Assembly (NCBI GenBank): GCA_958295895.1
Contig: CATQHI010000008.1
Location: 245,663 to 309,662 of the forward strand
Direction of reading: 5' to 3'
Length of the DNA stretch: 64,000 nucleotides
Source: Saprospiraceae bacterium
GTDB lineage: Bacteria > Bacteroidota > Bacteroidia > Chitinophagales > Saprospiraceae
A program made the translations under genes and the position numbers. Position 1 is the stretch's first letter; the number at the start of each line of letters is the position of its first letter. Below are positions 19,935 to 63,492 of this stretch, one piece after another. A model generated the notes under the pieces. The model was not told the origin of the DNA. It made no database searches and worked only from the letters and a program-made list of their open reading frames with translations.

Positions 19935-19952
19935 GGGCGCGGCCGCCGGTGC
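19935..19952 (-). repeat. Dispersed 18-nt GC motif, variant copy
   Basis: Read on the minus strand this is GCACCGGCGGCCGCGCCC, two mismatches from the consensus GCACCTGCGGCCCCGCCC. It lies in the divergent region, 25 bp before the TlpA gene. Confidence 0.6.
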
Positions 19953-19977
19953 AGGGCTTATGGCGTAAATTCGTGGT

Positions 19978-21330
19978 ATGCTACGCCTGCTTCTACTGCT
20001 ATGCTGCACCCTGAGTGTGGTCAGTCTCTCGGCCCAACGGGAGGTCACCCTCACCGCCCAGCTCGGCGACTGCCCGAAAGCCCCCCAACTGTACCGCTTC
20101 ACCGGATTTGGGTTCGAGCCCCTGCGGCCCCTCGTACTACAGGACGATGGCTCCTACCGCGCAACCCTTACCGTAGAGGAGCCGGTGTTTCGCTACTTGG
20201 GTACCGACCCGTCCTCGGCCGTGCCGATCATTCTGGGTGGAGAAGACTCGCTGACCATCAGCGGCGACTGCGGCGCGCTGCGGCAGGCCGTCGTGAGCGG
20301 TAGCGCGATCAATACGGCGTACGGGGAGCTAAAGCAGGAGTTCGATGCCTTTAATGAGCGGTACACCACCCTGATCCAGGACATCCAGGTGGTCCAGGAC
20401 GAGCGGGTGAACCGCGAGGGCGAGGAGGCCATGCGGCAGTTGGACGAGGAAAAGCGGGAGCTGGTAGCGCGCATGGCGGTGGAGTACCCACTACTAGGCC
20501 GCGTCGCTAGTTTGAATACCTACCTGAGCTTCTACAGTGCCGACCAGGAACAGTACGCCGGTGAGGTGGACCACTATGTACGGACTTACTTCCAGTTCGT
20601 CGACTTCACCGATCCGGGCTACAACGATCTATCGTGGACTTTCGAGGGCAGCCGGAACTTCACCGCTACGCTGATCAAAGTACTGCCCGCCGGGGAGATT
20701 GCCGCAGTGGTGCTGGAACAAACCGGTAGCTGGCCGGCCGGCAGTAAGGCCCGTTACCTGGCACGTAGTGGGGCACTCGGGGCACTCATCCCGACCAAGC
20801 ACCCCGCTACCCTTTCCGTCGCCCAGGCCCTGATCGCCGAGTACGAAAGCACGGAGCTCGGTGCCATCGCCTTCGTGAAACAACAGACCGCCGGACTGGC
20901 CAGCTTTACCATCGGGGCACCCGCGCCGCTCTTCACGGGAGAGTCACCGGAGGGCGAGTCGATCAGCCTAGAGGACCTCCGCGGGCAGTACGTACTGCTC
21001 GACTTCTGGGCCAGCTGGTGCGGTCCCTGCCGACGCGAGAACCCCAACGTGGTGCGCATCTACCATAAGTACAAGGAGCTGGGCTTCGAGATACTTGGTA
21101 TCAGTCTTGACGAGCACCGCGAGCGCTGGGAGGGGGCCATCGCGGCCGATGAGCTGGACTGGCTACACGTCTCCGATCTACAGGGCTGGGCCAGCGAGTT
21201 TGGCCGGCTTTACGGGGTGACGGCTATACCGCAGACCGTACTACTGGACCGTGAAGGCAACATTGTAGCCCGCGACCTCCGCGGTGCCGATCTGGAGCGC
21301 AAGCTGGCCGAGGTGCTCGGGGCCCGCTAA
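19978..21330 (+). CDS. TlpA/ResA-like thioredoxin with DUF4369-type N-terminal domain
   Basis: A 450-residue exported protein with signal peptide LLLLLCCTLSVVSLSAQ. Residues about 20-120 form a beta-rich DUF4369-like domain, and a helical middle part (120-300) follows. The C-terminal AhpC/TlpA thioredoxin domain starts GAPAPLFTGESPEGE and carries WASWCGPCR (Cys348, Cys351) and the cis-Pro segment AIPQTVLLD. It probably reduces periplasmic disulfides. lspA begins 28 bp downstream, suggesting co-transcription. Confidence 0.9.
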   Translation: MLRLLLLLCCTLSVVSLSAQREVTLTAQLGDCPKAPQLYRFTGFGFEPLRPLVLQDDGSYRATLTVEEPVFRYLGTDPSSAVPIILGGEDSLTISGDCGALRQAVVSGSAINTAYGELKQEFDAFNERYTTLIQDIQVVQDERVNREGEEAMRQLDEEKRELVARMAVEYPLLGRVASLNTYLSFYSADQEQYAGEVDHYVRTYFQFVDFTDPGYNDLSWTFEGSRNFTATLIKVLPAGEIAAVVLEQTGSWPAGSKARYLARSGALGALIPTKHPATLSVAQALIAEYESTELGAIAFVKQQTAGLASFTIGAPAPLFTGESPEGESISLEDLRGQYVLLDFWASWCGPCRRENPNVVRIYHKYKELGFEILGISLDEHRERWEGAIAADELDWLHVSDLQGWASEFGRLYGVTAIPQTVLLDREGNIVARDLRGADLERKLAEVLGAR

Positions 21331-21357
21331 AGGGCTGGTGCGCTACCTTTGGGCTAT

Positions 21358-21858: not shown

Positions 21859-21870
21859 ACGCAGCGTCTA
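21856..21870. terminator. Palindrome holding both convergent stop codons
   Basis: TAGACGC-A-GCGTCTA is a perfect 7-bp inverted repeat. The lspA TAG is the left end and the queG TAG, read on the minus strand, is the right end. It is short for a terminator but positioned as one. Confidence 0.5.
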
Positions 21871-22794: not shown

Positions 22795-22806
22795 GGTAAA
22801 CGCAAA

Positions 22807-22835: not shown

Positions 22836-22856
22836 CAAGGTAGGGAAGGGGGCTCC

Positions 22857-24239: not shown

Positions 24240-25204
24240 CTACTGTTTGGTCCGGGGATTGTAGATCACCGGTGGCGGTACGCCGGCACCGATACGCTGA
24301 CGCAGGTTGTATTTGAGGCTGATCTCGTGGCTACCGTCCTGCACCGTGCGCAAGTCCGATAGTGTAAGATCGTACGCATACGCTACCGAAATTTTATCAC
24401 TTAGGTTCAATCCGGCCATAAGTACAATCGCATCCGAGGTAACCTTATTGTAGCCCCGGTAAGCCAGCCCGGCAAAAATGTTCTCATTGTAGCGGGCAAT
24501 GGCGCCGAAACTGAGCTGGTGCTGGATACCGTCGCTGACCGCAAAGAGCATAGGTGAAATATCCCAGGCGCGCAGCAGATCGAAACGGGCGCGAAGGTAG
24601 GCGTGGTACTGCTGGCGCAGCGGATAGTCTCTACCCGGATAGGAGATCGTGCCCTGATTAAAGTTGAGTACGGAGACTCCGCCTTCCAGTCGTTCTGCTT
24701 GATAGTAAGCACCCAGGGCTAGGGTGAATGTTCCCGCTCCCTCGGTACCGTCCGGAATCAGGTCGTCGTTGTGGATGATCACGCCCGGCTCGGGGTATTG
24801 TCCACCGGTCGCCCGTAGAATGGACCCATTCAGACTCATCTGTTGGTACCGGGCCGAAAGCCCCAGCGACCATACGGCGGTGGGGCGCACGAGCTGGTAG
24901 TTCCAGCTTGCACCGAAACGGTTCATGGTGCGCGCGCCAATCTCGTCCCGCTCCCCCTCGATGCCGAAGCCGCTGCTCAGAAAGTACACGGGTAGGTGAG
25001 CGCTGATGCGTTGTCCGCTGGGCTGTCCCTCCAGTCCGGTCCACTGTGCGCGGTAGCTGGCCGTAACGCTCAGGCTATTGTCCAGGCCGGCGTAGGCGGG
25101 ATTGAACTGTACGGGGTCGAGCCAGAAGAGGCTGTACTGCGCAAATTGCTGCGCACCCGCGGCCCCGGCCACTAATAGACAGACAAGAAGGAGCAGATGT
25201 CGGG

Positions 25205-25208: not shown

Positions 25209-27202
<1,994 letters not shown>

Positions 27203-27234: not shown

Positions 27235-27265
27235 ACACACGGGCGGGGTCGCAGGTGCAGTGTGT
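27235..27265 (-). repeat. Dispersed 18-nt GC motif carried in the loop of a hairpin
   Basis: On the minus strand 27241-27258 reads GCACCTGCGACCCCGCCC, one mismatch from consensus. It is flanked by ACACAC (27235-27240) and GTGTGT (27260-27265), which can pair. It lies 38 bp before the DUF255 start in the same direction. Confidence 0.7.
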
Positions 27266-27311: not shown

Positions 27312-29549
27312 CTACATTCCCTTCTCTATCAGCTCAATAGCCCGCTCCAACAATTCATCCCGCCCATCACGCACTCCCTCCAGCGTCAGCGGCACCTCGA
27401 TATCCGGTACGATACCGACCCGCTGGGTAGGGGTACCGTCGGGGTAGAAGATGCCGATACCGGAGATACCCGACGATAGTCCGCCCGGCAGGAGTATGCT
27501 GGAATAGTTACCATCGGCCCCGGCGGTGGTGCTACCGATGATGGTGGTCAGGGGGCTAGCACGAAAAGCCATGGCGGTATACTCGGCCTGACTCTGGGTA
27601 AGCTCGTTGACCAGTACGACTACTTTTCCGGTATAGGGGTCGGGGGAGGCGGGGATCTCCAGGGGTTCGGTCCACTCGAATGCCCCTGGGTTGCTTATTG
27701 ATCCGTGGGTGAACTTGACGAAGGGTGTATCCTCTTTCAGCAGCCAGCCGCCGAGCGAGAAGGGTACAAACGTAGCGGGATAATTGCGGATGTCGACGAT
27801 GAGTCCTTTCACCTTGGCAAAGGTGTCCGGTAGTAGCTTGACGTCCTGCTCGGTGATGTTCTGCAGGCTTACGTAGCCGATATTGTCATCTAGCAATTCC
27901 AGGGCGGGGCGGGTGCGGGGGGCTGGGCCCCAGTACTGGTCGATTTGGTCTTGGGGAAATAGCGGCACGGTCAAATCGAGCGTACGTTCCGCGCGTTTTA
28001 CGGTCACTGCGAGCATATTCTCTTTGCTGCGCAGCAGGTTTCGGGCCATATCCCGGTACCGGGCGGCGTCATTACTAGCAGGATAGTCCGGCTTCCATTC
28101 GGCGACCAGATCCTCTAGGGGGCGGCCTTCCAGGTGAGTAATCACGTCCCCTATTTTTAGGCCGGTTGTATCGCTCAGTTCGTCGTTGTAGTAGTCGGCG
28201 ACCGTAAAGCCGGCCGCCAAATGACGCAAGTGGACAGCGGCGTAGCGGTTACCCCGGGCGTGATCTATCCACTCCGCCCCGGCTAGCTGGGCGTGGGTAT
28301 CGTTGATTTCAGCGATCAGGCGAAGTAGAGTGTACTCATACTCCGCCTGGTCATCGAGCTCCAAGAGTGGAGCAATGTAAGTGGGCAGCACCTCCTCCCA
28401 GTCGCGGTCGGTCTCCTCTACGTAGGGGAAGAAGTAATAGATTATATTCCAGTAGCGGTACAGGGTCAGTAACCGGTAGCCGGCATCGGGTAGGGTCATG
28501 GTGACGTAACCATCCTCGTGGCGAAAGTCCGGATTGCCCACCCCGGGGGCCAGACCGACGTAGTAATGCTGTCCTGCGTTGCGGTTGCGATAGATATGGC
28601 CTAGCTGCTCGACCAGCAATTCATTCGTAAGTAAGTTCGTCAGTGTAGTCAGTGGCACCGTTCGCACCGGATCCCTAAGGGCTTCGGCACAGGGATCGCA
28701 GGGAGCCACCGGGCCGAGCCGTTCGATCCAGCTCAGCAGTACCGTTTCGCTTTCCACCTGCGTCCCCGCCGCTAAGTAATCCGGCAGCACTCGGAAGAGC
28801 TCCGCGTCGAAGTTATGCTGCCCGGCCGCCACGGCGGGGTGGTGGTACTTAACAAAGCCCCATACACGGCCCAGCACGTCCAGCCTATCGACCACTTCCG
28901 GACTTACGGCCGGAAATTCAACGCGCGATCCGGTCAAAAATGCCGTGTCTCGTGCTGCTGCGTAGCTAGGGGGTGGGCGGGGCGTAAGTTGTCCGATAGG
29001 TTGGCCGTCAATGGTTACCGCGAAATTATCAAACCAGGCCTCCCCGGGGCCGTGCAAGATTCCCCCGACTGCGATTGCTTGGGCGTCACGTGGATAAGGT
29101 AGCGTGAGCTGCCGGTACGTCCATTCATCCTGGGTACTGGCGATGGATTGGTCAAAAGTATTGCCGTACTGTAGCGGTCCGTCGGGACCGTCTATTCGCA
29201 GGAGTAACGCGGCCATATTTTCGGTGATATCGCGCGTACGCAGCCATCCACTCAATGTGATAGAGTCACCGGCAAACTGCCCGGGAAGTATGCGAAGGGC
29301 TGCACCGAATTCAGCATCTTGTCCTTCTTGGTGCTGGGCGATATACAAGCTTCGTGTACCAGAATGTGCTTCAGTAGTACTGTCTCCTTCCAGCCTGTAT
29401 CCCTTCGGTCCTATTTGGCTCCAGTCAGTGGGTAGCGCTCGACCAGCGGTGGTAGTCTCGAAGTCCAGGTTATGGCTTACGTCTAGTGTCGGTGTTCTAG
29501 CACACGCAGCCAATAATATAAATAGGAGGGACGGGTAAAGAGCACGCAT
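27312..29549 (-). CDS. S41 family peptidase, lipoprotein
   Basis: A 745-residue exported protease with lipobox LLAAC (Cys16). After the anchor there is a carbohydrate-binding-like beta-sandwich (about 28-175, NLDFETTTAG...WFDNFAV), an alpha/beta region, a PDZ-like segment (LKIGDVITHLEGRPLEDLV near 480) and the tail-specific protease core. The catalytic serine is in NELTQSQAEYTAM (Ser653), followed by GADGNYSSILLPGG. It probably cleaves envelope proteins. It stands 55 bp after the MarR gene on the same strand, so it may be in that transcript. Confidence 0.88.
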   Translation of the reverse strand: MRALYPSLLFILLAACARTPTLDVSHNLDFETTTAGRALPTDWSQIGPKGYRLEGDSTTEAHSGTRSLYIAQHQEGQDAEFGAALRILPGQFAGDSITLSGWLRTRDITENMAALLLRIDGPDGPLQYGNTFDQSIASTQDEWTYRQLTLPYPRDAQAIAVGGILHGPGEAWFDNFAVTIDGQPIGQLTPRPPPSYAAARDTAFLTGSRVEFPAVSPEVVDRLDVLGRVWGFVKYHHPAVAAGQHNFDAELFRVLPDYLAAGTQVESETVLLSWIERLGPVAPCDPCAEALRDPVRTVPLTTLTNLLTNELLVEQLGHIYRNRNAGQHYYVGLAPGVGNPDFRHEDGYVTMTLPDAGYRLLTLYRYWNIIYYFFPYVEETDRDWEEVLPTYIAPLLELDDQAEYEYTLLRLIAEINDTHAQLAGAEWIDHARGNRYAAVHLRHLAAGFTVADYYNDELSDTTGLKIGDVITHLEGRPLEDLVAEWKPDYPASNDAARYRDMARNLLRSKENMLAVTVKRAERTLDLTVPLFPQDQIDQYWGPAPRTRPALELLDDNIGYVSLQNITEQDVKLLPDTFAKVKGLIVDIRNYPATFVPFSLGGWLLKEDTPFVKFTHGSISNPGAFEWTEPLEIPASPDPYTGKVVVLVNELTQSQAEYTAMAFRASPLTTIIGSTTAGADGNYSSILLPGGLSSGISGIGIFYPDGTPTQRVGIVPDIEVPLTLEGVRDGRDELLERAIELIEKGM

Positions 29550-29578
29550 TCCCCTAAGGTGCAGCTTTTTACGGATGT

Positions 29579-29595
29579 GGCGGGGCCGCAGGTGC
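29579..29595 (-). repeat. Dispersed 18-nt GC motif, exact 17-nt copy
   Basis: Read on the minus strand, GCACCTGCGGCCCCGCC is identical to the consensus over 17 nt. It lies 29 bp before the S41 peptidase start, in the same direction. Confidence 0.75.
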
Positions 29596-33228: not shown

Positions 33229-33246
33229 GCACCCGCGGCCCCGCCC
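33229..33246 (+). repeat. Dispersed 18-nt GC motif, one mismatch
   Basis: GCACCCGCGGCCCCGCCC differs from the consensus at one position. It lies 6 bp downstream of the stop of an outer-membrane protein remnant, in the opposite direction to that frame. Confidence 0.7.
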
Positions 33247-38419: not shown

Positions 38420-39823
38420 ATGACCGCACCGTACCTACACCGTTACCTGCTTTTACTCGGCTTTCCGCTGCTGCTCGCCTCCTGCTACTCCGCCCGGCAG
38501 TACGTGCGGCCGGAGGCGGAGATCGTCACGGCCCGCTACTACCGCACCGACAGTCTGGACCGGGATAGCAGCTCCCTGGCCCTGCTTTCCTGGCGGGAAC
38601 TCTTCACGGATCCTTACCTGCAGGGCTACATCACGGAGGGCCTCGGTAACAACATCGATATCCGGGTGGCGCTACGGCAGATCGACATCGCCAACGCCTA
38701 CCTGCTCCAGGCCAACGTACGCATCCGCCCCACCGTGGGCGGCACCCTGCAGTACAGCCGTTCGGAGCTATCGAAGAATAGCCAGTTCGGGGCCCAGTTC
38801 AGCACCCTCAACCAGTATCAGCTCAGCGGTACGCTTTCCTGGGAGGCGGACGTCTGGGACAAAATCAGCAGTGCCCGGCGGGCGCAGGAGGCGCTTTACC
38901 TGCAGTCCGTGGCCGCCCACACCGCCGTGAAGAGCCGCCTGGTGGCCAACATCGCCAGCACCTACTATGACCTACTGGCGGTAGACGAGCAGCGCCGCAT
39001 CGCCGAGCAGACCATCGCCAACCGCCGCAACAGCTTGGAAACTACCCAGGCCCTGAAGGAGGCGGGCAACGTCACCGAGGTAGGCGTGAAGCAGACCGAG
39101 GCCCAGATTTACACCGCCGAGGCCATCCTGATCGACCTTAGGCTGCGCGCCCACCTGCTGGAGAATACGCTCTCGATCCTGCTGGGTACCGATCCGCGGG
39201 AGTTCGCCCGGTCGAGCCTGGAGGCTCAGCAATTGACCACCGAGCTGCGCACCGGCGTCCCCGCCCAGTTGCTGGCCAACCGACCGGACGTGATCGCGGC
39301 CGAGTATGCGCTGGTGAATGCCTTTGAACTGACCAATGTGGCGCGGGCCGACTTCTACCCCTCCTTCACCATTTCGGCCACGGCGGGGCTACAGAGTCTG
39401 ACGCTTGGCAAGTTTCTCGACCCAAGCTCCTTTTTCGCTACCCTGGTGGGGGGGGCCGCCCGTCCGCTCATCAACGGACGCCGGATCAGGACGCAGTACG
39501 CTGTCTCGGAGCTGGAGCAGGAGCAGGCCACGCTGGATTTCCGCTCCGCCGTGCTCACTGCCGGTAAAGAGGTGGCCGACGCCCTCTACGGCTACGAGGC
39601 GGCCACCGAAAAGATCGACGTGAAGCAGCGCGAGTTCGCCGCCTACGAGCTGGCGACCGAATACTCCGAGGAGCTCCTGGCCAATGGCTACGCCAATTAC
39701 CTGGAGGTACTACGGGCGCGGGAGAACGCGCTGAATTCCAGCCTGGACATCGTCACGGCCAGAAACAACCGGCTGCAAGCCATCGTAAACCTGTACGAGG
39801 CGCTGGGGGGCGGGTGGCGGTAA
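38420..39823 (+). CDS. RND efflux outer-membrane channel lipoprotein (TolC/OprM/NodT family)
   Basis: A 467-residue outer-membrane factor with lipobox LLLASC. Two repeated OEP domains are visible, with long helices (ALRQIDIANAYLLQANVRIRP near 77 and the QEQATLDFRSAVLTAGKEVADALY region near 365) and the NRPDVIAAEYALV signature. It completes the efflux operon, 3 bp after the permease. The AcrA-AcrB-OprM order and absence of a local regulator suggest constitutive or distantly controlled expression. Confidence 0.95.
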   Translation: MTAPYLHRYLLLLGFPLLLASCYSARQYVRPEAEIVTARYYRTDSLDRDSSSLALLSWRELFTDPYLQGYITEGLGNNIDIRVALRQIDIANAYLLQANVRIRPTVGGTLQYSRSELSKNSQFGAQFSTLNQYQLSGTLSWEADVWDKISSARRAQEALYLQSVAAHTAVKSRLVANIASTYYDLLAVDEQRRIAEQTIANRRNSLETTQALKEAGNVTEVGVKQTEAQIYTAEAILIDLRLRAHLLENTLSILLGTDPREFARSSLEAQQLTTELRTGVPAQLLANRPDVIAAEYALVNAFELTNVARADFYPSFTISATAGLQSLTLGKFLDPSSFFATLVGGAARPLINGRRIRTQYAVSELEQEQATLDFRSAVLTAGKEVADALYGYEAATEKIDVKQREFAAYELATEYSEELLANGYANYLEVLRARENALNSSLDIVTARNNRLQAIVNLYEALGGGWR

Positions 39824-41485: not shown

Positions 41486-41517
41486 CGTTGCACCTGCGGC
41501 CCCGCCCCCCTGCAACG
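41486..41517 (+). repeat. Dispersed 18-nt GC motif, exact copy, inside a hairpin
   Basis: GCACCTGCGGCCCCGCCC (41490-41507) lies between CGTTGCA (41486-41492) and TGCAACG (41511-41517), a perfect 7-bp inverted repeat. It sits in the divergent region, 53 bp before the next plus-strand start. Confidence 0.8.
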
Positions 41518-43455: not shown

Positions 43456-43749
43456 TCACCGGCAACCAGTGGAGAAGGTGGTGACGAGCTCGGTGTGCTG
43501 CATGTTGAGCTGCTGCTGAAGGTCATCGCTGATGCCCGCCCCGATGCGGCGGCCGTCCACGTCGGGGTTCCTATTCATGTGGTTGAACGTCTTGGGGATA
43601 TTGGAGCCGCGACCGCGCTGGTAGTTGTCGTAGATGCCGTTGGCGACCGTGATGCCGTAATAGTTGGCGGGGTCGATATGGGTGGCGGTGATGGTCCACC
43701 GGGCGGGCACGCAGGTGCTGTAGAGGAGTAGGATAAAAAAGATGCGCAT
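43456..43749 (-). pseudogene. Remnant of a GH65 family glycoside hydrolase/phosphorylase N-terminal domain
   Basis: A 97-residue frame. It starts with a weak signal peptide (MRIFFILLLYSTCVPA) and continues WTITATHIDPANYYGITVANG, the N-terminal signature of Bacteroidetes GH65 proteins. The text then jumps to IYDNYQRGRGSNIPKTFNHMN, skipping about 20 residues expected in GH65, and stops near HTELVTTF, where the real enzyme would run several hundred residues more. Both the internal deletion and the missing catalytic part mark it as a relic. It is convergent with the Tat-exported gene. Confidence 0.65.
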
Positions 43750-44537: not shown

Positions 44538-47475
44538 ATGACCCTGCCCCAGTTAAGCTTCAAGTACCCCTGGCGGGACTACCAGGCGCGCATCCTCGAC
44601 CGGCTGGAACTGTACCGTGAGGACCGCAAGATCCACGTCGTAGCACCCCCCGGCGCCGGCAAGACCGTGCTCGGGCTGGAGATCATGCGACGACTCGGCA
44701 AACGCACCCTGGTACTGGCCCCGAGCCTCACCATTCGGGCACAGTGGACGGAGCGCTTCGTGCAGGACTTCGGCGCTGACGAGGCCCTCATCTCCAACGA
44801 CCTCTACGCCCCGGCCGATCTGACTATCGTCACCTACCAGGCCATGTTCGCCTACCACCAGAAGATGGGCACCGACGGGCTCGACTGGGTAGAAGCTCTC
44901 GTAGTCGATGAGTGCCACCACCTGCGCCGCGAGTGGTGGCGGGTGCTGGACGGGGTCATGGACCGCTACCAGCCCGAGCTCGTGGCCCTTACCGCTACCC
45001 CACCCTACGACGTCAGCGGCGTGGAGTGGCGGCGCTACCACAGCTTCTGTGGCGAAATCGACGAGGAGATCAGTATCCCGGAACTAGTGGCCAGCGGCGA
45101 CCTGTGTCCGCACCAGGACTTCATCTACCCCATCCTGCCCCCGCCCGGGGAATCACGCCTCATCACCGAGTGGCAGGAGCGGAAGGATGCCCTGCTCGAA
45201 CTGGCCCACACCCGCTCCGAGCTCGTTTACTACCTGCGCGAGCACCCCTGGCTGGCCGATCCCGAGCCACACTACGAGGACATCTTCGGTACGCCGGAGT
45301 ACTTCACGGCCCTGCTGAGTATGCTGCGGGCCCAGGGTAGCGAGCCGCCCGCCGCCGCCCTTGGGGTACTGCACGGGGAGGCTACCCTGGCCCCGGCCCT
45401 CGATGATCATTGGCTGACGCTCTTCCTACAGCGGGCCCTACGCGACGATGTGTACTTCACCACCGAAAAGGGCCGCGAACTCCTGCGCCCATACAAGCGG
45501 GCCCTTTCCACCATGGGGGCCTGGCACGACAGTAAGCTCCACTTCGACAGCGCGCTGCCCCCCGCTTCCGGGGCCGAAGCCGAGGAGCTAGCTAGCCCCC
45601 AGGCCAAACTCGATGCCCTGACCGAGATCGCCGCCTTTGAGAGCGACGCCCTGGTGGATGAGCTACGCATGGTCATCCTAACCGACAACATCTACGATGA
45701 GTTCCTTCCCACCACCGAGCACGATCGCCGTGCCATCACCAAGGTCGGTACCGTGCCGGTCTTCGAGACCCTGCGCCGGCAGGAGGGAGCCTATTACCAG
45801 AACAAGCTCTGTATACTGAGCGGCTCCCTGGTCGTGATCCCGCAAGCGGCCGAGCGCCGTCTGCTCGAGATCGCCTACGATCAATTGCCCGACGAGCGGG
45901 TCATTAAGACTCAACCCCTGTTTAAGGGCTCCGACTACGTGGTGGTAGACACGGGCACACTGGCCAATAAGTATGCCGTCAGCTGGCTCACCCAGCTCTT
46001 CACGGAGGGCCACATGACCGTGATCGTCGGCACCAAATCCCTGCTCGGCGAGGGTTGGGATGCTCCCGTGGTCAATAGCCTCGTGCTAGCTAACCGCGTC
46101 GGCAGCTTCGTGCTCAGCAACCAGATGCGCGGCCGGGCCATCCGCACCGTGCGCGGCAAGCCCGGTAAGACCGCCAACATCTGGCACCCCATGGTCGTGC
46201 ACCCTACCGTGCGCCGCGGCGGACCTGACGTAGACCGCCTGCGCCGTCGCTTCCGGGGCTTCGCGGGGCCACGACTGGACGGTAAGCCCGCTATTCAGAA
46301 TGGTTTGGAGCGCTTTAGTCTGCAATTCTCCGCACCTGCGACCCTGCCCACGCAGACGCCCCAGCACCTCCTGCCCGCCGGCCGCTCCTACAGCACGACC
46401 GACGCCGAGGCCATGGTCGCCCTACGCCGCGATAGCCTGCAGCGGGCCACCGAGCGGCCCCAACTCGCCGGAGCGCTGGACCGAGGCCCTCGGCACCGGC
46501 ACCCAACTCGTGGAGGCAATCAAACCGCCGCAGGAACGCTACTACGAGCGTAAGGATCCCCTTACGCTGCACTACCGCGAATCGATCGACCGCCACATTG
46601 AGGAGCAGTACCGGCTGCTGCTACTCAACATGAAGGTAGCCACTATGGCTGCCCTGGTAGGGGGGATGCTTGGGGGGGTGCTGCTAGGCCAGTTGGCCCT
46701 CCCCGCGCTACTGATCGGAGCCCTGCTGGGCGCGGTGGCCGCAGGGGCCGGAACCTACTTCTATACCCATTTCCGCACCCTACGCTGGCAGGTCGCGGGC
46801 CGCCTCAGCGACCCCGACCGTAACCCCGCCTTCGATGCAGAGTTGAATCTGACCCCTTACTTCATCATGCCGCTGCTGTTTGCCCTGGTCTTGTTGTCGG
46901 TGAGCTGGCTGGCTCCGCTGGTCTTCGCGGTCGTGTACGCCGGCTGGATGGCCGTCTGCGCCCTACGCTCCCCCGTGCAGCAGCGCGACGAGGCCGTGCG
47001 CCGCCACACCCTGCTGGCCAATACCCGCGAGCGCCTACTGAGCTACGGTAAGGCTCTGGCCACTGCCCTGGGTACGGGCAAGCACTTCCACGTCGCTACC
47101 CCCGAGCAGCTCAAGCTGGAGGAGGAGGGCGACGAGCAGTTCCTCTACCTCAGCGACGCCGAGCACCACGACAGCCAGCTCTTCGCCTCATCACTGGCCG
47201 AGCTCATGTCGCCCATCGACAACCCCCGTTACCTGCTACGCCTCAAACTGCCCGACGACTGGACCCGCGGCGAGTACTACCTAGCTGTACCGAACACCCT
47301 CGGCACCCGCAAAGACGCCGATGCCCTGGCCCTTACCCTCGGCGAGACCGTTAATCAGGAGTTCGAGGCCGTCTACACCCGCGAGCCCGCCGGCCGCCTG
47401 CATCTGCTCACCGCCCGCCTCCAGGCCAGCTCCAAGACCGGAGAGCTCGCCAAGCGCGAAATGCTCTGGCGATGA
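44538..47475 (+). CDS. Membrane-anchored SF2 (DEAD/DEAH) helicase, with one apparent frameshift
   Basis: About 978 residues if the frame is repaired. Helicase motifs: PPGAGKT (37-43), DECHH (124-128), TATPP (152-156), GEGWDAP (about 503) and QMRGRAIRT (about 528). A large insertion separates the two RecA domains. At 46458-46461 a CCCC run, where CCC is expected, moves the frame by one base. The continuation (PERWTEALGTGTQLVEAI) has no start of its own and carries four likely membrane segments (about 700-745 and 774-820), then a soluble tail ending EMLWR. A helicase tethered to the membrane is unusual. Its stop overlaps the next start (ATGA). The shift could be an assembly error, decay or recoding. 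Confidence 0.75.
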
Positions 47476-48173: not shown

Positions 48174-48595
48174 CCGTATTCCTGCTCAGCGTGTACTACA
48201 CCGCCCTCCTGATCTTCATCGTCCCCCGCATCCGCACGGCCCACAACCGGCAGCGCGTGCTCACCTGGCCGCAGACGAAGGCCATCCTGGAACCCCGCGT
48301 GACTTTACAGAAAGAAAGGGCGGGGACGCAGGGGCATCTCCAGGAGCCCTATGCCTACTACGTGGGCGGTCAAAAATACGAGGGCCAGCAGGTCGAACCC
48401 GGCTTCGAGCGGCAGCACCGGCACTACCGTAATATGGCGCGCTTTTACCTGATGCGACGCACGCCAACCGTCTTCTTCAACCCCCAGAATCCTACGGAGG
48501 CGTACCTGCAGCCGGGGCAGGATCCGCTGAGCTGGCGGGTGATCGGGTGGGGAGGGTTGGTGCTGGGGGCGTGGCCGGTGTTGCTGCTATTTTAG
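48170..48595 (+). CDS. DUF3592-type membrane protein, second copy
   Basis: A 141-residue protein with an N-terminal helix (FLLSVYYTALLIFIVPRI), the DUF3592-like block (TWPQTKAILEPRV, LQEPYAYYVGGQKYEGQQV, TVFFNPQNPTEAYL), and a C-terminal helix ending AWPVLLLF. It is a shorter paralog of the gene before it and starts in an ATGA overlap. Two related membrane proteins coupled to a membrane-anchored helicase suggest a complex. No homologous system is known to me. Confidence 0.8.
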   Translation: MTVFLLSVYYTALLIFIVPRIRTAHNRQRVLTWPQTKAILEPRVTLQKERAGTQGHLQEPYAYYVGGQKYEGQQVEPGFERQHRHYRNMARFYLMRRTPTVFFNPQNPTEAYLQPGQDPLSWRVIGWGGLVLGAWPVLLLF

Positions 48596-52314: not shown

Positions 52315-52332
52315 GCACCTGCGGCCCCGCCC
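52315..52332 (+). repeat. Dispersed 18-nt GC motif, exact copy
   Basis: GCACCTGCGGCCCCGCCC lies 33 bp before the OYE reductase start, in the same direction. Confidence 0.8.
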
Positions 52333-53475: not shown

Positions 53476-53476
53476 G

Positions 53477-55024
53477 CTAGCGCGAGGCTTTGAAGTCCTT
53501 GATGTGCTCGCCGAGGTCGTACACCGGCACCTTCCCCTTCAGATTCTTGCGTAGCAGGCTGGCACCGATGGCCGACTGGTAGCCGCCACCGCAGTGCACC
53601 ACAATCGGGCGGTCCTGGGGCACTTCTTTCCAGCGGTCGCGCAGCGTCCAGACGGGGATGTTGATGGCGCCGTAGAAGCGGGTGTCCTCGATGGCCGGTG
53701 TTTCGGGGCGCACATCCACCACGGTATACTTGCCGATGTGGTGCTCGCGGAAATCCTCCAGGTCGAGGGGTGTTTCCATCAGCTCGGCCAGGTCGCCGAC
53801 CCACTGCGTAGCGCCGGTCACCTGCCGGTCGTAGCCGATCTTGGCGATACTCTGTGCGGTTTGGTAGGCAGCTTCTTCGGAGTCCACGATTACGTATAGT
53901 TCCTCACCGGGCTTCACCATGGCCCCGAGCCAGAGGGCAAATTCTCCCTTCGCCTGTATGTTGATGGCATTGCGGGGGTGGCCGGCCTTAAAGTCGTCGG
54001 CGGGCCGGGTATCAATTAGCCAGGTGTTGGTGCCTAACGGTAGGGCAACGGGCGGGGCCGCCGGTGCAGGGTTGATAGCGGGGGCGGTTTCCTCCTCTAG
54101 GATGACGACGTTGCCGTGGGCCTCAACGACGCGCTCGGTGGTCACGGTTGGTGTGGTTTTCGGCATGGTGGCGGTAGTAGCATCATCGTCGCCCACGGGT
54201 TGCATGTCATCTTTATGCATGCCGGTGAGGAGGTGGCGGAAGGGAGACATGGCCCGTTCCCAGCGGTGGTAGCCCTCCTGATTACCCTCCAGGCAGCCGT
54301 AGACGTAGGCGGGTACGAAGGGGTAGTCTTCCGTCAGCCAGTCGGCGAACTGATCGGCGTTTTTGATCTTCTTGTCGAAGACGGGGCTTTCGTCCTGCGC
54401 CTCCGTGAGGTTGAAACGGCCGTGGGTAGCATCACCCATCTTACTGAAGTGAGCCTCCTCCCCAAATCCGGCGTAAACCGTAGCCCGCTGGTCGAAGCCG
54501 CGGATGATGCCGTAGATGCTCTCGTAGCTTTCCTTGGCGTAGGTGCGCTCGTTGTGCAGGGGGTTCTTGTCCTCGGGGCGTGGCAGGGGGTAGCCAGCAC
54601 CATCCTGAAGCAGGGTATTGCCGGTGAAGATGCCCTCTACGTTACCGTCGGCGTTCATGGCTAATAGGCTTATGCTATCGGCCGTATATCCGGGGGTGAG
54701 TTGGGTTTGGATGTGGCAGCCTTCTCCGAACTCGATCATGGTGGCCCGGCCAGCCTTCACGAACTGCCCCTCGCCGTGAAAATGATAGGTGGTAGCTCCG
54801 ACCATATCGGCACCCGTTACCTCGCGCAACTCGGCCCAGCCACTGGCGAAAGCCCCCGGGCAGTGGGTCATGACGATGGCGCGCAGGCGAAGTTTATTCT
54901 CCGCCAGGTAGTCTAGGTAGGGCTTGATGCGGCGGGTTGGGTCTACGGCCACGGCCTCGCCCCCGTCGGTGATGAGGTAGGAATACTGGTCGATGGTCTC
55001 GTCGTGGAAGCGCTGTACGGTCAT
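53477..55024 (-). CDS. MBL-fold/double-rhodanese fusion with metal ligands replaced
   Basis: A 515-residue protein shaped like bacterial persulfide dioxygenase-rhodanese fusions. The N-terminal MBL domain keeps the fold (YLITDGGEAVAVDPT, IFTGNTLL) but has lost the metal ligands: HxHxDH is HCPGAF (54-59), the usual TPGHT is TPGYT (110-114), GDT is GNT (135-137) and the late GHG is GFG (186-188). Two rhodanese domains follow; only the second has the cysteine, in VHCGGGYQS (Cys478). The linker between them reads APAAPP where the dispersed GC motif lies. It probably acts in sulfur handling as a rhodanese with a non-metal MBL scaffold. ATG 55024 was chosen by homology. Confidence 0.85.
   Translation of the reverse strand: MTVQRFHDETIDQYSYLITDGGEAVAVDPTRRIKPYLDYLAENKLRLRAIVMTHCPGAFASGWAELREVTGADMVGATTYHFHGEGQFVKAGRATMIEFGEGCHIQTQLTPGYTADSISLLAMNADGNVEGIFTGNTLLQDGAGYPLPRPEDKNPLHNERTYAKESYESIYGIIRGFDQRATVYAGFGEEAHFSKMGDATHGRFNLTEAQDESPVFDKKIKNADQFADWLTEDYPFVPAYVYGCLEGNQEGYHRWERAMSPFRHLLTGMHKDDMQPVGDDDATTATMPKTTPTVTTERVVEAHGNVVILEEETAPAINPAPAAPPVALPLGTNTWLIDTRPADDFKAGHPRNAINIQAKGEFALWLGAMVKPGEELYVIVDSEEAAYQTAQSIAKIGYDRQVTGATQWVGDLAELMETPLDLEDFREHHIGKYTVVDVRPETPAIEDTRFYGAINIPVWTLRDRWKEVPQDRPIVVHCGGGYQSAIGASLLRKNLKGKVPVYDLGEHIKDFKASR
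54050..54067 (-). repeat. Dispersed 18-nt GC motif inside the MBL-rhodanese gene
   Basis: On the coding strand it reads GCACCGGCGGCCCCGCCC, one mismatch from consensus, and encodes APAAPP in the interdomain linker. Confidence 0.7.
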
Positions 55025-56568: not shown

Positions 56569-56586
56569 GCACCTGCGGCCCCGCCC
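56569..56586 (+). repeat. Dispersed 18-nt GC motif, exact copy
   Basis: GCACCTGCGGCCCCGCCC lies in the 138-bp gap between the kinase and regulator genes, 72 bp before the regulator start and in the same direction. The gap has no other recognisable feature. Confidence 0.8.
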
Positions 56587-56658
56587 GATATTACACCTAT
56601 AAACGCCTCCAACACCCGCACCAACACAACAACCGAAAACGCAACAACTCACCCCCCC

Positions 56659-57451: not shown

Positions 57452-60400
57452 TCGACGGAAACTCTATTTCCGGAGCTATTCCCGCCAAACTCCGGTGCAT
57501 ACATACACTCCACCCGCCCCAGTCCACTGCTGAAGCTCCCTACGTAGGTCGCAAACAGGTCGTACTCAAGCGTATACGTACCCCGCGGCAGGTGGTCGAT
57601 GAAGAAGTTCGTGGCTAGGTCGCCGGGGGTGAAGTAGTAACCCAATCCATTTTGGTACTGGTAGCCGGACAGCGCGTCGACGGGCTCAAAGGTGGCGGCG
57701 CGGCGGTCCTTGACGTGTACGTAGTCCATGGCGCGGTCGCTGCGCAGGGTGAGGCGGACGGTAATACGGTCGCCGGGGTGAAGCGGGGCGTCTTCCGTGA
57801 TCGGTTGGAGCTGGTCGCCTACTTTCTTGTAGAGGGTGCGTTCGAGGCTGAGGGGCCCGGTGTGGCTGGCTTCGACGCGGTCGGCGAGCTCGGTGTACTG
57901 CCAGAAGACGCCGCCCCAGACGAGGTCGTTACCGGGGTTTGCGATGGTCGTGGTAGCTAGGTCGCTGCTGACTTGCTCGGCCGGCACGCGGAGGGTGAAC
58001 TCGCCCGTAGCTGCTTCCGCCGTTTCCTGGAGGGCGCGGACGCGGGTGCTGAGTGCTTTGGTCGTGCGGCCGGGCCAGCTTGCCGTGATCGGCTGGGTGG
58101 GTTGATCGATGGTGAAGGTTTCTCCAGAATTAAGGATAGCGTAGACGGCCGCGGCGGTAGCCTTGGTGGTCGGCCAGGCGGTAGTGCGCTTGTTGGTCAG
58201 TAGGTAGAGGCGCATCTCATCGAGCTCCTCCGGGCGGGGGTCGATGGTACGGAAGGCTTCGAGGAGGCGGGTGTGGGTCTCGATGGGTAGCTCGTTCCAG
58301 CTGTAGCCCTGCTCATACTTCCAGTACATACCGAACTCATCCTTGTGCAGGGCACGCTCGCGGAGGCTGGCGAGGATGACCTCCCCCCGGCCCCTTCCGG
58401 CGGAGGGGGAATGCGCCATGGTGATGGCGATTAGCGCCTGCTCGTACAGTCCGTAGGACAGCCATTCGGCAAAAGCGCGCTCGCGGTAGAAGTCAAAGGC
58501 CTTAGTGCTGGGTGCAGAAGCCTCCTCGATTAAAGTGCGCGCGTAGAGGTAGTGGAGCTGCAGCGGAGTGGGCTGGTAGTCTTGCCGCAGCTGAGTAGAA
58601 TCTTTGGTTTCAGCTAGTAGCTGCTTATAATCTTCCTCCAGTTGCCGGTCTAGGTAGCGGAGGGCGGCGGTAGTGATCTGGTCCACCGTAGCGCGCTGAG
58701 CGGGGTCGATAACGCCGAGCTGCTGCATACGGGCGATGGTCTCCACCACATACTGCGTCATGTAGCGATCGGAGGGGCCGCCGGGGAACCAACTGTAGGC
58801 CCCGTCGCTTTCCTGGCGGGCGGCCAGTTTGGCGAGGTCCTTTTGCTGCTCGCGGGCCAGTCGTTCAAGCTGGAAGAGTTCGCCGATACGGGCGCGCTGC
58901 TCGGCCTCGGACTGGGCAGCGCGTACCCAGGGCGTCTCGGTGAGCAGGGCGGTTTTGAGGTCCTGGTTCTTTTCCAGTTCGCTCAGCAGGGCGGTGGAGT
59001 CGGCCTCCCATTGGTTGAAGACTTCCTTTAGCACCGGCTTCGTGGACACCGTCTGGTAGGCCAGCTGGTTGGCGAAGTAGCGGTTGGCGAGCTGCTCGGT
59101 GCAGTCGTAGGGGTACTCCATCAGGTACGGCAGGGCCTTGAGGGCGAGCCAGGCGGGGTTGGTGGTGGCCTGGAGGGTGTAGCTGATGGGAGCTAGGGAG
59201 GGGGAGACGGGGGATGAAGGGAGTAGCCCGGGGAGGATGACTTCCTTGGTTTCGCCGCGCCGGAGGTAAAAGGGTTGGGAGACGGTGAGGAGGGTGCGAT
59301 CGGAGAGGATGGGCACGACATTTTCCTCCCCGTCGCTGAAGCTTCCGCTCCGGGCGATGATGCGGTAGCCCAGCGGTCCATCCAGCGAGGCACCGTCGGG
59401 CACGGAGATGGGGAAGCGTACGGTAGCCGAGCTACTATCTTCCAGACGCAACAATTCACTAGCACCACTACTCTCTACGCGTACTACCTCGCTCCCGTCA
59501 GGATTAAATAGTTCCAGATCGATGCGCACGTCCATCGCTAGGTCCGTTAGGTTAGACACCTTAGCAGTAAGCTCCATCTGATCACCCTCCCGGAGGAAGC
59601 GCGGTGCGTTGGGTAGAACCATCAGCTCCTTTTGGGTCATAACCTCGCGCTGGGAGATCACGTAGTTCAGCGCCTTATCGTGGGCGAAGAGACGGAACTT
59701 CCAGGCAGTGAGTGCCTCGGGACTGGTAAAGGTGACCCGCAGCGAGCCATCGGGGCCGGCGGTCAGGTCAGGTAGCCAGAAGGCAGTCTCCTGTAGGTTG
59801 GTGCGTAGGTCGACGGGCGGCTCGGCGGAAATGGGCGGGGCCGCAGGTGCAGCGGAAGTTGGTGAAGGTTCATCGGCTTCGGCATAACCCGTGATTACGA
59901 CCTCACTCAGGGCGGCGTCTTGCACTTCGGGAGCAGCATTTTCCGGCATGGTCATCCGACTACGCAGGCTTATGCTCGCTGCTTTACCCCTAAGCTGGTT
60001 CGTGAGATTGCTCGTGGTCAAGTTCAAATAGGGCAGTTGCGGAATGGTATCCTGCGGCGTACCAGCGGAGTTGCCGTAGGACTCCCCAAACGCACTCCCA
60101 AAACTAGCGTTCTCCACCAGCGATCCACTACCCCCGTACACCGGATACGGCGAAAACTGCCACCCCTGTCCGGCGTAGAGCTGATCCAGACTGGCATCGT
60201 ACATCGTGGCGAGAGCTGCCGCGGCGGCCGGTAGGCTATCGTTGGACTTAAGCTGCAGCGTCCACTCCTCGGGGGTGCCGGGGCGGAGCTTGCTGCGAAA
60301 GGTGGCGTAGGTAACGTGCAGTGCCTTGTTCTCCCACGGCAGGGGCAGCTGCCGGCTTTCCTGAAATACTCGGTTCAGGCGCACGAAGGCGAGCTGGTGG

Positions 60401-63400: not shown

Positions 63401-63417
63401 GCGAGGAGGTAGCGCAT
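57448..63417 (-). CDS. Bacterial alpha-2-macroglobulin family protein
   Basis: A 1989-residue envelope protein with signal peptide MRYLLALLLLTLTAALVAQ. A helical N-terminal part (20-360) precedes MG domains (from about 480; TLLTDRPLYRPGQLVHVYG, VTDAYGRFSVDFELP). The alpha-2-macroglobulin core follows, with the thioester motif YPYDCTEQLANR (Cys1439 to Gln1442), and a toroid and receptor-like C-terminus (57-59 kb). It would trap proteases at the envelope. A TonB-plug-like SEVVITGY lies near 1170, next to an AAPAAPP linker encoded by the dispersed GC motif. A GC palindrome at 58383-58409 encodes SPSAGRGRG. No pbpC follows; the usual E. coli partner is absent here. Confidence 0.93.
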   Translation of the reverse strand: MRYLLALLLLTLTAALVAQTDPADYAKLKAYVEAGKYQSALTIADSIYARAARGGQSDELLRALGERVTLTQLLAEDEQEAALGVLREALSTQGQDPVVAALTHLMLGEVYSNYAQQNQYRLSQVTEVAGQEVSDSLPLADYTLQQLLAAGRNHLYHSLTLAREQQTRLAEIPALVVGGETRRDELPTLYDLLVGRAMDLLSSSLGSLTDDRPLDAAELLVPAGDFCDLNLAARYDTTQATPRKLLLYQEWISFHLNEVTPALLYADLERLRYVHQLGAADSLYIRALEQAYERYTALPERDRFLVEMARLLDRDDVSLGELPRVRALALLERVGEEDEVARVEAVQLRASITAATLSTQTHSHYPRGEHLLVYLIYRNVEQVYYRLYSYDPARPADYIRDVSERLAEIQQGELVGSGNQRLAPNDDYSQHTTELDLATLPAGGYYLVVSDSENFDPEAGTFTVSDFQVTDLSTLKVSSETGGPVQVVDRTTGAAVADVRVEVYRSNRRDQDYRLVYTRRSDDDGVFTLPAPKDYAQYRLVLTHASTGDRLVTNLYTYNNRSGGSLTQTYTTLLTDRPLYRPGQLVHVYGLQYQTGVDQLPSILPEVTVTVILRDANYQEVAQQQAITDAYGRFSVDFELPESGLTGEFSIQTDNGNAAIRVEEYKRPRFEVTLEAPEAAVPGQPVTVRGEALTYAGPPVTDARVNYRVYLEEVRWYFYRGYGGDGGGGERELVTSGETTSGEQGEFNLTFTPSASLGTTGYPSYRYVIETDVADQTGETHTATTTVGIRGERPAVVVTVSKETLDRGDSLTIRAQTDQRDTTLAIQLRITPVTKPNASLLERDWPVPDRPVIERDSFVDHFPYLSYAAVPELAEWPTDGDSVYQTTATLRQGTATVSLPADFPAGHYRIDWRYADGIAGAPAAFSVYNSATAELPAGTLYQFTDVPDSVRVDEPINFTLLSALDLPLVLSRWESRSGLVLERDSTTARRLTLRYTPTEADRGGLFHQLAFVRLNRVFQESRQLPLPWENKALHVTYATFRSKLRPGTPEEWTLQLKSNDSLPAAAAALATMYDASLDQLYAGQGWQFSPYPVYGGSGSLVENASFGSAFGESYGNSAGTPQDTIPQLPYLNLTTSNLTNQLRGKAASISLRSRMTMPENAAPEVQDAALSEVVITGYAEADEPSPTSAAPAAPPISAEPPVDLRTNLQETAFWLPDLTAGPDGSLRVTFTSPEALTAWKFRLFAHDKALNYVISQREVMTQKELMVLPNAPRFLREGDQMELTAKVSNLTDLAMDVRIDLELFNPDGSEVVRVESSGASELLRLEDSSSATVRFPISVPDGASLDGPLGYRIIARSGSFSDGEENVVPILSDRTLLTVSQPFYLRRGETKEVILPGLLPSSPVSPSLAPISYTLQATTNPAWLALKALPYLMEYPYDCTEQLANRYFANQLAYQTVSTKPVLKEVFNQWEADSTALLSELEKNQDLKTALLTETPWVRAAQSEAEQRARIGELFQLERLAREQQKDLAKLAARQESDGAYSWFPGGPSDRYMTQYVVETIARMQQLGVIDPAQRATVDQITTAALRYLDRQLEEDYKQLLAETKDSTQLRQDYQPTPLQLHYLYARTLIEEASAPSTKAFDFYRERAFAEWLSYGLYEQALIAITMAHSPSAGRGRGEVILASLRERALHKDEFGMYWKYEQGYSWNELPIETHTRLLEAFRTIDPRPEELDEMRLYLLTNKRTTAWPTTKATAAAVYAILNSGETFTIDQPTQPITASWPGRTTKALSTRVRALQETAEAATGEFTLRVPAEQVSSDLATTTIANPGNDLVWGGVFWQYTELADRVEASHTGPLSLERTLYKKVGDQLQPITEDAPLHPGDRITVRLTLRSDRAMDYVHVKDRRAATFEPVDALSGYQYQNGLGYYFTPGDLATNFFIDHLPRGTYTLEYDLFATYVGSFSSGLGRVECMYAPEFGGNSSGNRVSVE
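59833..59850 (-). repeat. Dispersed 18-nt GC motif inside the macroglobulin gene
   Basis: On the coding strand it is an exact GCACCTGCGGCCCCGCCC and encodes APAAPP in a linker between the TonB-plug-like segment and the next macroglobulin domain. Confidence 0.8.
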
Positions 63418-63474
63418 ACGGTGGCGAAGTTCGGGGTTTCTCCTACTTGATGCAGCTTTCCCCCGAATTGCACA

Positions 63475-63492
63475 GCACCTGCGCCCCCGCCC
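63475..63492 (+). repeat. Dispersed 18-nt GC motif, one mismatch
   Basis: GCACCTGCGCCCCCGCCC lies immediately after the stop of the T9SS cargo gene (minus strand) and 57 bp before the macroglobulin start, opposite in direction to both. Confidence 0.7.

What the first reader, a model, noticed from the sequence alone, without database searches (positions are those of the whole stretch)
19935..63492. A dispersed 18-nt GC motif recurs between genes, mostly 25-75 nt before starts
GCACCTGCGGCCCCGCCC or a near copy lies at 19935, 27241, 29579, 33229, 41490, 52315, 56569 and 63475 between genes. Four of these (29579, 41490, 52315, 56569) are exact over 17-18 nt. In five copies (27241, 29579, 41490, 52315, 56569) it reads in the direction of a gene that starts 25-75 nt further on. 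An 18-mer repeated this often in 64 kb cannot be chance. It matches no motif I can name. It may be a regulatory site, a leader RNA element or a small mobile sequence.
Basis: partly seen in the sequence, partly recalled or inferred. Interest (0 to 1): 0.8.

Follow-up and report, generated by a model that had tools for sequence, protein, structure and literature searches.

The report
Genome-wide DNA uptake-like tag in Neolewinella
A short DNA word is sprinkled hundreds of times through the genomes of Neolewinella bacteria, is largely kept between species even inside genes, and has different versions in different species, which is how the 'self' tags behave that a few other bacteria use to recognise and take up DNA from their own kind.

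Summary
The repeat is real: 23 copies within 3 mismatches in the window against 0.40 expected, 12 of the 20 closest inside genes. The host genome, a Neolewinella (Bacteroidota), has 205 exact and 632 relaxed copies; reversed controls are 0 and 1. Outside the genus it is nearly absent: 3 of 147 family genomes have one hit each.

Copies are not insertions and mostly not promoter sites. In a sister species, fixed bases are 93% identical in 47 ungapped sites (89.5% in all 61 aligned) where flanks are 67-70%; third codon positions are 88.5% identical inside the motif against 51% beside it, in both orientations. Related species carry dialects, and one has an unrelated word (867 copies). Sites avoid a 73-kb island and are otherwise evenly spaced.

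This is the genomic signature of a DNA uptake sequence, reported so far in Neisseriaceae and Pasteurellaceae. The genus has ComEC and DprA but apparently no type IV pilus motor, so the receptor would be new. Uptake itself is untested.

The parts
9144..9161 (-). motif copy, 2 mismatches; inside a gene (antisense), encodes PGADAGA
   Evidence: the G009 ortholog keeps 1 mismatch to the relaxed consensus
10096..10113 (+). motif copy, 2 mismatches; inside a gene (antisense)
14558..14575 (+). weak match, 3 mismatches; probably a coincidence of a conserved protein motif (TsaD-like, recalled, not tested)
19087..19104 (+). motif copy, 2 mismatches; inside a gene (antisense)
19935..19952 (-). motif copy in a divergent intergenic region; the G009 ortholog is a full match to the relaxed consensus but differs at the three variable positions (6, 10, 13)
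25153..25170 (+). motif copy, 2 mismatches; antisense in the N-terminal signal-peptide-like part of a gene; gapped in the G009 alignment
26664..26681 (+). motif copy, 1 mismatch; inside a DsbH-like gene (antisense), encodes GGDAGA; not kept in G009
27241..27258 (-). motif copy, 1 mismatch; intergenic, 38 nt before the DsbH-like gene
28754..28771 (+). weak match, 3 mismatches
29578..29595 (-). motif copy, 1 mismatch (first 17 of 18 exact); intergenic, about 29 nt before the ORF 27312-29549
33229..33246 (+). motif copy, 1 mismatch; intergenic
39249..39266 (+). motif copy, 2 mismatches; inside a gene (sense)
41350..41367 (-). motif copy, 2 mismatches; sense, signal-peptide-like region of a carboxylesterase gene (LLLSTRGRAQ)
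41490..41507 (+). exact motif copy; divergent intergenic region, 53 nt before the gene start called here
43701..43718 (-). motif copy, 2 mismatches; sense, signal-peptide-like region (LLLYSTCVPA)
46332..46349 (+). motif copy, 2 mismatches; inside a gene (sense)
48318..48335 (-). motif copy, 2 mismatches; inside a gene (antisense); gapped in the G009 alignment
52315..52332 (+). exact motif copy; intergenic, 33 nt before an FMN oxidoreductase gene
54050..54067 (-). motif copy, 1 mismatch; sense, APAAPP linker; a copy at what looks (by eye) like the same protein site in G009, G017, G004 and G020, with position 13 = G in all four
56569..56586 (+). exact motif copy; intergenic, 72 nt before a LytTR response-regulator gene
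58032..58049 (-). motif copy, exact to the relaxed consensus (position 13 = G form); inside the alpha-2-macroglobulin-like gene (sense)
63475..63492 (+). motif copy, 1 mismatch; intergenic

Best explanation
The motif (YTGCACC[T/C]GCGNCC[C/G]CGCCC, with weak flanking preferences) is most likely a self-recognition signal for natural transformation in Neolewinella, working like the DUS of Neisseria and the USS of Haemophilus. A surface receptor would bind double-stranded DNA that carries the motif. DNA of the same kind would be taken up, one strand passed through ComEC, protected by DprA, and recombined. Because fragments with the motif enter more often, recombination steadily restores and spreads it wherever the local sequence can bear it: gaps between genes, signal peptides, Ala/Pro/Gly linkers. 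Receptor changes in different lineages would then produce dialects, which isolate species genetically. Shown here: abundance, genus restriction, conservation at the DNA level, no strand bias inside genes as a whole, dialects (one shared by sister species), even spacing, absence from one island, presence of ComEC and DprA genes. Inferred: competence, biased uptake, the receptor (probably not a type IV pilin, since no full-length pilus motor was found) and the drive.
For: Abundance and strands: 205 exact copies (88+/117-) and 632 relaxed (301+/331-), reversed controls 0 and 1. Genus only: relaxed pattern in 21 of 21 genus genomes (two with 1-2 hits); 3 of 147 other family genomes with one hit each. 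Mismatch spectrum: 88 perfect, 56 one-off, 44 two-off in 861 kb (reversed 1, 8, 31), the excess of perfect copies described for USS (PMC1626085 passages). DNA-level conservation against G009: in 47 ungapped of 61 alignable of 144 sites, 15 fixed positions 93% identical, 3 variable positions 63%, flanks 67%; in all 61, fixed 819/915, variable 116/183, flanks 5104/7288, third codon positions 201/227 against 773/1512 in flanks (sense 110/119 against 392/791, antisense 91/108 against 381/721); shuffled-motif control 47% against 52% over 25 sites. The T pair and C at -3 recur in all four site classes. Dialects: position 13 G; position 12 A in G013 (687 copies, 2 in own); a longer form in sisters G001/G007 (412, 384); an unrelated motif in G011 (867, 3 in the other 20 genomes). 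Even spacing outside the island (CV 0.81 against 1.02, P = 0.0017) and a 72.8-kb gap with 12.4 sites expected. ComEC in 21 of 21 and DprA in 16 of 17 genus genomes.
Against: My searches found no uptake or transformation report for the genus. A full-length type IV pilus/T2SS motor (PF00437) was not found, whereas the known systems use type IV pili. ComEC and DprA also occur in relatives without the motif, so they do not discriminate. Density (0.13-0.17 per kb) is about a sixth to an eighth of the roughly 1 per kb reported for Neisseria and Haemophilus. Copies in own and G009 gaps favour the sense direction upstream of genes, and coding copies within 150 nt of a start are also mostly sense (22 to 11 own, 14 to 5 G009); a pure uptake tag does not predict that. 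In G009 perfect copies only equal one-off copies (53 and 53). 14 of 61 aligned sites are gapped inside the motif. The 8 perfect antisense coding copies are less conserved (fixed 96/120, flanks 685/960). The G011 motif shares no core with the others. Unshared DNA outside the big island is not poorer in sites (all 19 sites of 158 kb unshared DNA lie outside the 73-kb island).
Confidence: 0.7

Rival explanations
1. The motif is the binding site of an intracellular chromosome protein (nucleoid organiser, segregation or recombination/repair factor) that needs many sites spread over the chromosome, in genes and between them.
For: Conservation at the DNA level in both orientations, even spacing, preference for gaps before genes.
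Against: Different main forms in sisters G013 and G019 and full replacement in G011 would be unusual for such sites (my judgement). There is no strand bias as in Chi or KOPS (59+/64- on C3; comparison recalled), and the motif is much longer than those. Perfect copies outnumber one-off copies in own, unlike ordinary protein sites (PMC1626085 passage), though not in G009. One island lacks sites.
Confidence: 0.18
2. A transcription or leader-RNA element: a regulator binds 25-75 nt before genes.
For: Own density is highest in divergent (0.76/kb) and co-directional gaps (0.51/kb) against 0.12 in genes and 0.23 in convergent gaps; co-directional gaps 20 sense and 5 antisense. A mild bump of -7-like words at +20 to +29 (11, other bins 1-8).
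Against: 90 of 144 copies lie in genes, 46 sense and 44 antisense; antisense coding copies are also conserved at third codon positions; neighbouring genes scanned share no family; no fixed offset to the Bacteroidota -7 element; no sense bias in small samples of G001, G007, G011 and G013.
Confidence: 0.06
3. A small mobile or copied element (REP, MITE or similar) that inserts itself.
For: Very many near-identical copies; 14 of 61 aligned sites have gaps inside the motif.
Against: Conservation stops within about 16 nt of the core; sites are orthologous between species and 47 of 61 aligned sites are ungapped; position 13 changes at sites that are kept.
Confidence: 0.03
4. A by-product of coding: favoured Ala/Pro/Gly linkers and signal peptides in a GC-rich genome.
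For: Coding copies often encode APA[A/S/T]PP, GGDAGA or signal-peptide-like stretches.
Against: Copies are about four times denser in gaps than in genes, use several frames and both strands, and hold third codon positions. The reversed pattern, with equal composition, gives 0-1.
Confidence: 0.02

Closest known systems
DUS of Neisseriaceae (Frye et al. 2013, PMC3630211; abstract and DUS-dialects section read)
   Same: Hundreds to thousands of short non-palindromic copies, species dialects distributed by phylogeny, two dialects coexisting in one genome, restriction to a group.
   Different: [quoted passage not shown] Here the core is 18-20 nt at 0.13-0.17 per kb, in another phylum, without a detected pilus motor, and one species has an unrelated motif.
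USS of Pasteurellaceae (PMC1626085, PMC7811141, PMC12616744; passages read)
   Same: Strong consensus with more perfect than one-off copies (met in own, not in G009), weaker flanking preferences, not insertions, stable at orthologous sites, evenly spread, rare in new DNA, types by clade.
   Different: Sequence unrelated; USS sites are often inverted pairs acting as terminators, whereas here convergent gaps are the poorest of the gap types. USS systems have type IV pili.
Self-preference in Riemerella columbina (PMC7965970, uptake section read)
   Same: A Bacteroidota species in which its own DNA competes best in transformation; ComEC and DprA are needed in its relative R. anatipestifer (PMC8459023 abstract).
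   Different: No convincing motif was found there; the authors list only A/T-rich k-mers of up to 10 nt.
Chi, KOPS and HIP1 (recalled)
   Same: Over-represented dispersed chromosomal words.
   Different: Chi and KOPS are short and strand-biased; HIP1 is a palindromic octamer. None fits an 18-20 nt non-palindromic word with dialects.

Membership tests
DNA uptake sequences (DUS/USS) | Far more copies than chance, on both strands equally | tested here: met
   632 relaxed copies, 301+/331-, reversed control 1
DNA uptake sequences (DUS/USS) | Strong consensus: perfect copies outnumber one-off copies | tested here: met
   Own 88, 56, 44 (reversed 1, 8, 31); in G009 only equal, 53, 53, 35 (reversed 0, 10, 50)
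DNA uptake sequences (DUS/USS) | Arise by substitution, not insertion; stable at orthologous sites | tested here: met
   47 of 61 alignable sites ungapped, 43 of 47 within 2 mismatches; 14 gapped. Redfield's gap test against motif-free outgroups was not done
DNA uptake sequences (DUS/USS) | Distinct dialects in different species | tested here: met
   genome-wide counts and profiles
DNA uptake sequences (DUS/USS) | Dialects distributed by clade | tested here: inconclusive
   By eye on two single-gene trees: sisters G001/G007 share the longer form and own/G009 the position-13 C form, but sisters G013/G019 differ in main form; no formal test
DNA uptake sequences (DUS/USS) | A core shared by all dialects of the group | tested here: not met
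   The GC dialects share CC[T/C]GCG, but the G011 motif CTANCAAAGTAGCARTG does not
DNA uptake sequences (DUS/USS) | Under-represented in newly acquired DNA | tested here: met
   0 sites in a 72.8-kb island, 12.4 expected; but other unshared DNA is not poorer; one contig only
DNA uptake sequences (DUS/USS) | Evenly spaced | tested here: met
   CV 0.81 with the island cut out, P = 0.0017 weighted, 0.012 uniform; 1.18 with it; one contig only
DNA uptake sequences (DUS/USS) | About one copy per kb | tested here: not met
   0.13-0.17 per kb
DNA uptake sequences (DUS/USS) | Often inverted pairs doubling as terminators | tested here: not met
   Convergent gaps 0.23 per kb, the lowest of the three gap types
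DNA uptake sequences (DUS/USS) | Type IV pilus machinery with a minor-pilin receptor | tested here: not met
   PF00437: only partial hits of 19.0-25.5 bits in 18 of 19 genus genomes (ten of them just reach the 24.9-bit cut-off) and none in one, against 410-423 bits in two other genera; pilins and secretin not searched
DNA uptake sequences (DUS/USS) | DNA carrying the motif is taken up or transforms preferentially | not testable with these tools
   needs an experiment
Transcription-factor regulon | Sites confined to promoter regions of related genes | tested here: not met
   90 of 144 copies inside genes; 10 neighbours scanned share no family
Mobile repeat (REP/MITE) | Larger unit or insertion at new places | tested here: not met

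The most novel reading that the evidence does not exclude
A DNA self-recognition code for natural transformation evolved independently in the Bacteroidota, read by a receptor that is not a type IV pilin. In this one genus it has split into at least four forms and has been replaced outright by an unrelated word in one species, so the genus offers a living series of how uptake specificity changes and isolates species.
Probability: 0.6. Interest if true: 0.92.

Novelty: new variant of a known kind. Interest (0 to 1): 0.86.

Why it matters
A strong uptake preference for short motifs has been reported in two proteobacterial families (PMC7811141 introduction passage), and how Bacteroidota bring DNA across the outer membrane is poorly known: a Riemerella screen found four essential proteins of unknown function (PMC8459023 abstract). 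If right, this is a third origin of the trait, in a group where no pilus motor was found. It supplies 21 held genomes with mapped forms of the word in which to seek the receptor by co-variation, and a possible tag for transforming these bacteria. Even if uptake is wrong, a word conserved at third codon positions in both orientations and replaced between species would point to an unknown genome-wide DNA-binding system.

Tried and rejected
Promoter link: TANNTTTG and its reverse complement show no fixed offset to intergenic copies; the one mild bump is 11 words at +20 to +29. Replication strand bias: exact copies on contig C3 look skewed in the list (19 minus of 26), but the larger relaxed set is 64 minus and 59 plus. 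A motif in other genera: word searches on 20 kb each of G021, G022, G023 and G024 gave no dispersed word beyond tandem or weakly enriched ones; more of G023 was fetched but not analysed, so dialects in other genera stay open. G001's first top words came from one tandem array; its dispersed form appeared when words were counted by distinct place. First trees were wrong because minus-strand genes were read on the wrong strand; they were redone. Shared versus unshared DNA as a whole is a weak test (0.158 against 0.120 per kb); only the large island is clear. The one viral-contig hit (L285) carries three copies in 14.7 kb and did not match my samples of own and G009 at 1e-20, so its nature is open. 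The receptor was not sought. The gene caller is my own simple script, so starts and gap lengths are approximate.
Full report
What is there. The window holds 23 copies of GCACCTGCGGCCCCGCCC within 3 mismatches, against 0.40 expected and at most 2 in 100 shuffles. Four are exact: 41490, 52315, 56569 and 59833. With my gene calls, 8 of the 20 copies within 2 mismatches lie between genes and 12 inside genes. The window belongs to a 4.77-Mb genome of 35 contigs. The whole genome has 205 exact copies (88 plus, 117 minus; reversed control 0) and 632 of the relaxed form GCACCNGCGNCCNCGCCC (301 plus, 331 minus; reversed control 1).

Range. The exact word occurs in 16 of 40 genomes searched, all 16 among the 21 of the genus. 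The relaxed word occurs in 21 of 21 genus genomes, with counts from 904 down to 2 and 1. In a draw of 150 family genomes, the three genus members have 208 to 632 hits, and 3 of the other 147 have one hit each.

Anatomy. On contig C3 (797 kb) the logo of 148 copies (up to 3 mismatches) shows a core with variable positions 6, 10 and 13, two pyrimidines before it (mostly T), and weak preferences further upstream (C at -10, A at -8, C at -3). Split into intergenic, sense near gene starts, sense elsewhere and antisense coding sites, all four classes show the T pair and C at -3, with mild T-richness downstream. Recognition therefore seems to follow the DNA, not the gene. In 861 kb of own sequence there are 88 perfect, 56 one-off and 44 two-off copies of the relaxed word, against 1, 8 and 31 for the reversed word; in 674 kb of G009 the numbers are 53, 53 and 35 against 0, 10 and 50. 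More perfect than one-off copies is the pattern noted for USS (PMC1626085, passages seen); own shows it, G009 does not.

Placement. Per kb, own copies (relaxed, up to one mismatch, n = 144) lie at 0.12 in genes, 0.51 in co-directional gaps, 0.76 in divergent gaps and 0.23 in convergent gaps. Inside genes 46 are sense and 44 antisense; within 150 nt of the start 22 and 11, elsewhere 24 and 33. In co-directional gaps 20 are sense and 5 antisense (P = 0.004); G009 shows 10 and 3 (P = 0.09). This bias near gene starts is not explained by an uptake tag. Small samples of other species lean the other way or neither: co-directional sense/antisense 2/5 in G007, 1/3 in G013, 2/2 in G011, 0/2 in G001. 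Of ten genes near window copies scanned, nine have a Pfam family and none is shared. No Bacteroidota -7 element sits at a fixed offset. Coding copies often fall in Ala/Pro or Gly/Ala linkers and signal-peptide-like starts.

Conservation. Contig C3 and the window were aligned with 674 kb of G009. Of 144 own sites, 83 had no alignment in the part fetched; of 61 aligned, 14 had gaps inside the motif and 47 did not. In the 47, fixed positions are 93.0% identical, the three variable positions 63%, and flanks 67%; 43 of 47 keep at most 2 mismatches. From the G009 side (39 ungapped, 7 gapped, 60 without alignment) the figures are 96.6, 62 and 67%. With the gapped sites counted, all 61 give 89.5, 63 and 70%; intergenic sites (18) 87.0 against 69.2% in flanks, sense coding (23) 94.2 against 69.2%, antisense coding (20) 86.3 against 71.8%. 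Third codon positions inside the motif are 201/227 identical against 773/1512 in flanks; sense 110/119 against 392/791; antisense 91/108 against 381/721. The eight perfect antisense copies are weaker (fixed 96/120 against flanks 685/960; third positions 33/41 against 153/293). Sixty shuffled motifs gave 25 alignable control sites with 47% inside and 52% beside at third positions. Selection or drive thus acts on the DNA word itself, also where it is read backwards in a gene. At kept sites position 13 goes from C to G eleven times and from G to C once, own to G009. At the linker site 54050 four other species carry the G form.

Dialects. Profiles from 20 to 797 kb per genome give position 13 mostly G in G006 and G019, mixed C/G in G009, G014 and G005, and mixed A, G and T in G015; G013 has GCACCTGCGGCAGCGCCC. 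Genome-wide the G013 form has 687 copies there, 2 in own and 0-112 elsewhere. G001 and G007, sisters in two gene trees (100/100 and 86/95), share a form two bases longer by eye (412 and 384 copies; own 48; 148, 106, 103 and 92 in G012, G017, G016 and G004, which therefore carry both forms; at most 67 elsewhere; trees). Sisters G013 and G019 differ in their main form. G011, the longest branch in one tree, has CTANCAAAGTAGCARTG: 867 copies with one mismatch allowed, against 3 in the other 20 genomes together. Apart from G000 and G009, the profiles rest on 3 to 26 sites each, but the genome-wide counts are whole.

Spread. On C3 with the island cut out, gaps between sites are more even than random placement weighted by coding density (CV 0.81 against 1.02, P = 0.0017; uniform P = 0.012); with the island in, the raw CV is 1.18. 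One 72.8-kb stretch has none where 12.4 are expected (about 5e-4 after counting all gaps). That stretch is almost wholly absent from the G009 sample and holds a type I methylase, a transposase, a TonB-dependent receptor and sugar-use genes among ten scanned. Other unshared DNA is not poorer: all 19 unshared sites of the 493-kb span lie outside it.

Machinery. ComEC is in 21 of 21 genus genomes (37 of 40 searched) and DprA in 16 of 17 (23 of 26 searched; the genus miss is 55% complete); both are also common in relatives without the motif. The type IV pilus/T2SS motor family gives only partial hits of 19.0-25.5 bits in 18 of 19 genus genomes, ten of which the tool counts as just over the 24.9-bit cut-off, and none in one; two other genera give 410-423 bits. 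I infer that the weak hits are other P-loop proteins. Pilin and secretin families were not searched.

Reading. These are properties listed for uptake sequences: a strong consensus, no orientation bias, origin by substitution, stability at orthologous places, dialects, even spread and scarcity in new DNA (passages of PMC1626085, PMC7811141, PMC12616744; abstract and one section of PMC3630211). Against plain membership stand the pilus motor not found, the lower density, the lack of terminator pairs and the unrelated G011 word. I therefore say it works like a DUS/USS but do not file it as either. In Bacteroidota, Riemerella columbina prefers its own DNA without a known motif (PMC7965970 section), and R. 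anatipestifer needs ComEC, DprA, ComF, RecA and four unknown proteins (PMC8459023 abstract). My literature searches listed no report of such a motif in Lewinella, Neolewinella or Bacteroidota (listings only); the library is partial.

Confidence. That the word is a genus-wide system conserved at the DNA level, with dialects: about 0.95. That it serves DNA uptake: 0.7. The chief rival is an intracellular genome-wide DNA-binding protein (0.18).

Noticed in passing
own genome G000 C3:229974-302797 (loci L028-L032): A 73-kb stretch without any motif copy and almost wholly absent from the G009 sample, with HsdM, a transposase, a TonB-dependent receptor and rhamnosidase genes: a likely acquired island.
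   Followed up: partly
G000 C3:525516(-)/525662(+) and G009 C1:1985301(-)/1985447(+): An inverted pair of exact motif copies with the same 146-nt spacing in two species.
   Followed up: no
G000 C2:226251 and G016 C16:280735: Exact motif copies about 530 and 550 nt before the ComEC domain of comEC in two species.
   Followed up: no
L058:3705-5509 (G001): A tandem array of about 93-nt units rich in GGAGCTCCAG inverted repeats.
   Followed up: no
L285 (viral contig IMGVR_UViG_3300040801_004178), positions 6885, 10014, 14678: The only viral-collection contig with an exact 18-nt copy; it has two more copies (one with 2 mismatches to the relaxed word) and 60% GC, so it may be host DNA or a provirus edge.
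   Followed up: partly
G012, G016, G017, G004 genomes: Two forms of the word (18-nt and 20-nt) coexist in moderate numbers, like the two DUS dialects reported in Simonsiella muelleri.
   Followed up: no
signal-peptide-like gene starts, e.g. window 41350 and 43701; several on G000 C3: Several coding copies fall in signal-peptide-like regions and encode CTC[G/V]PA- or RAQ-like stretches, so a DNA word may shape secretion signals here.
   Followed up: no
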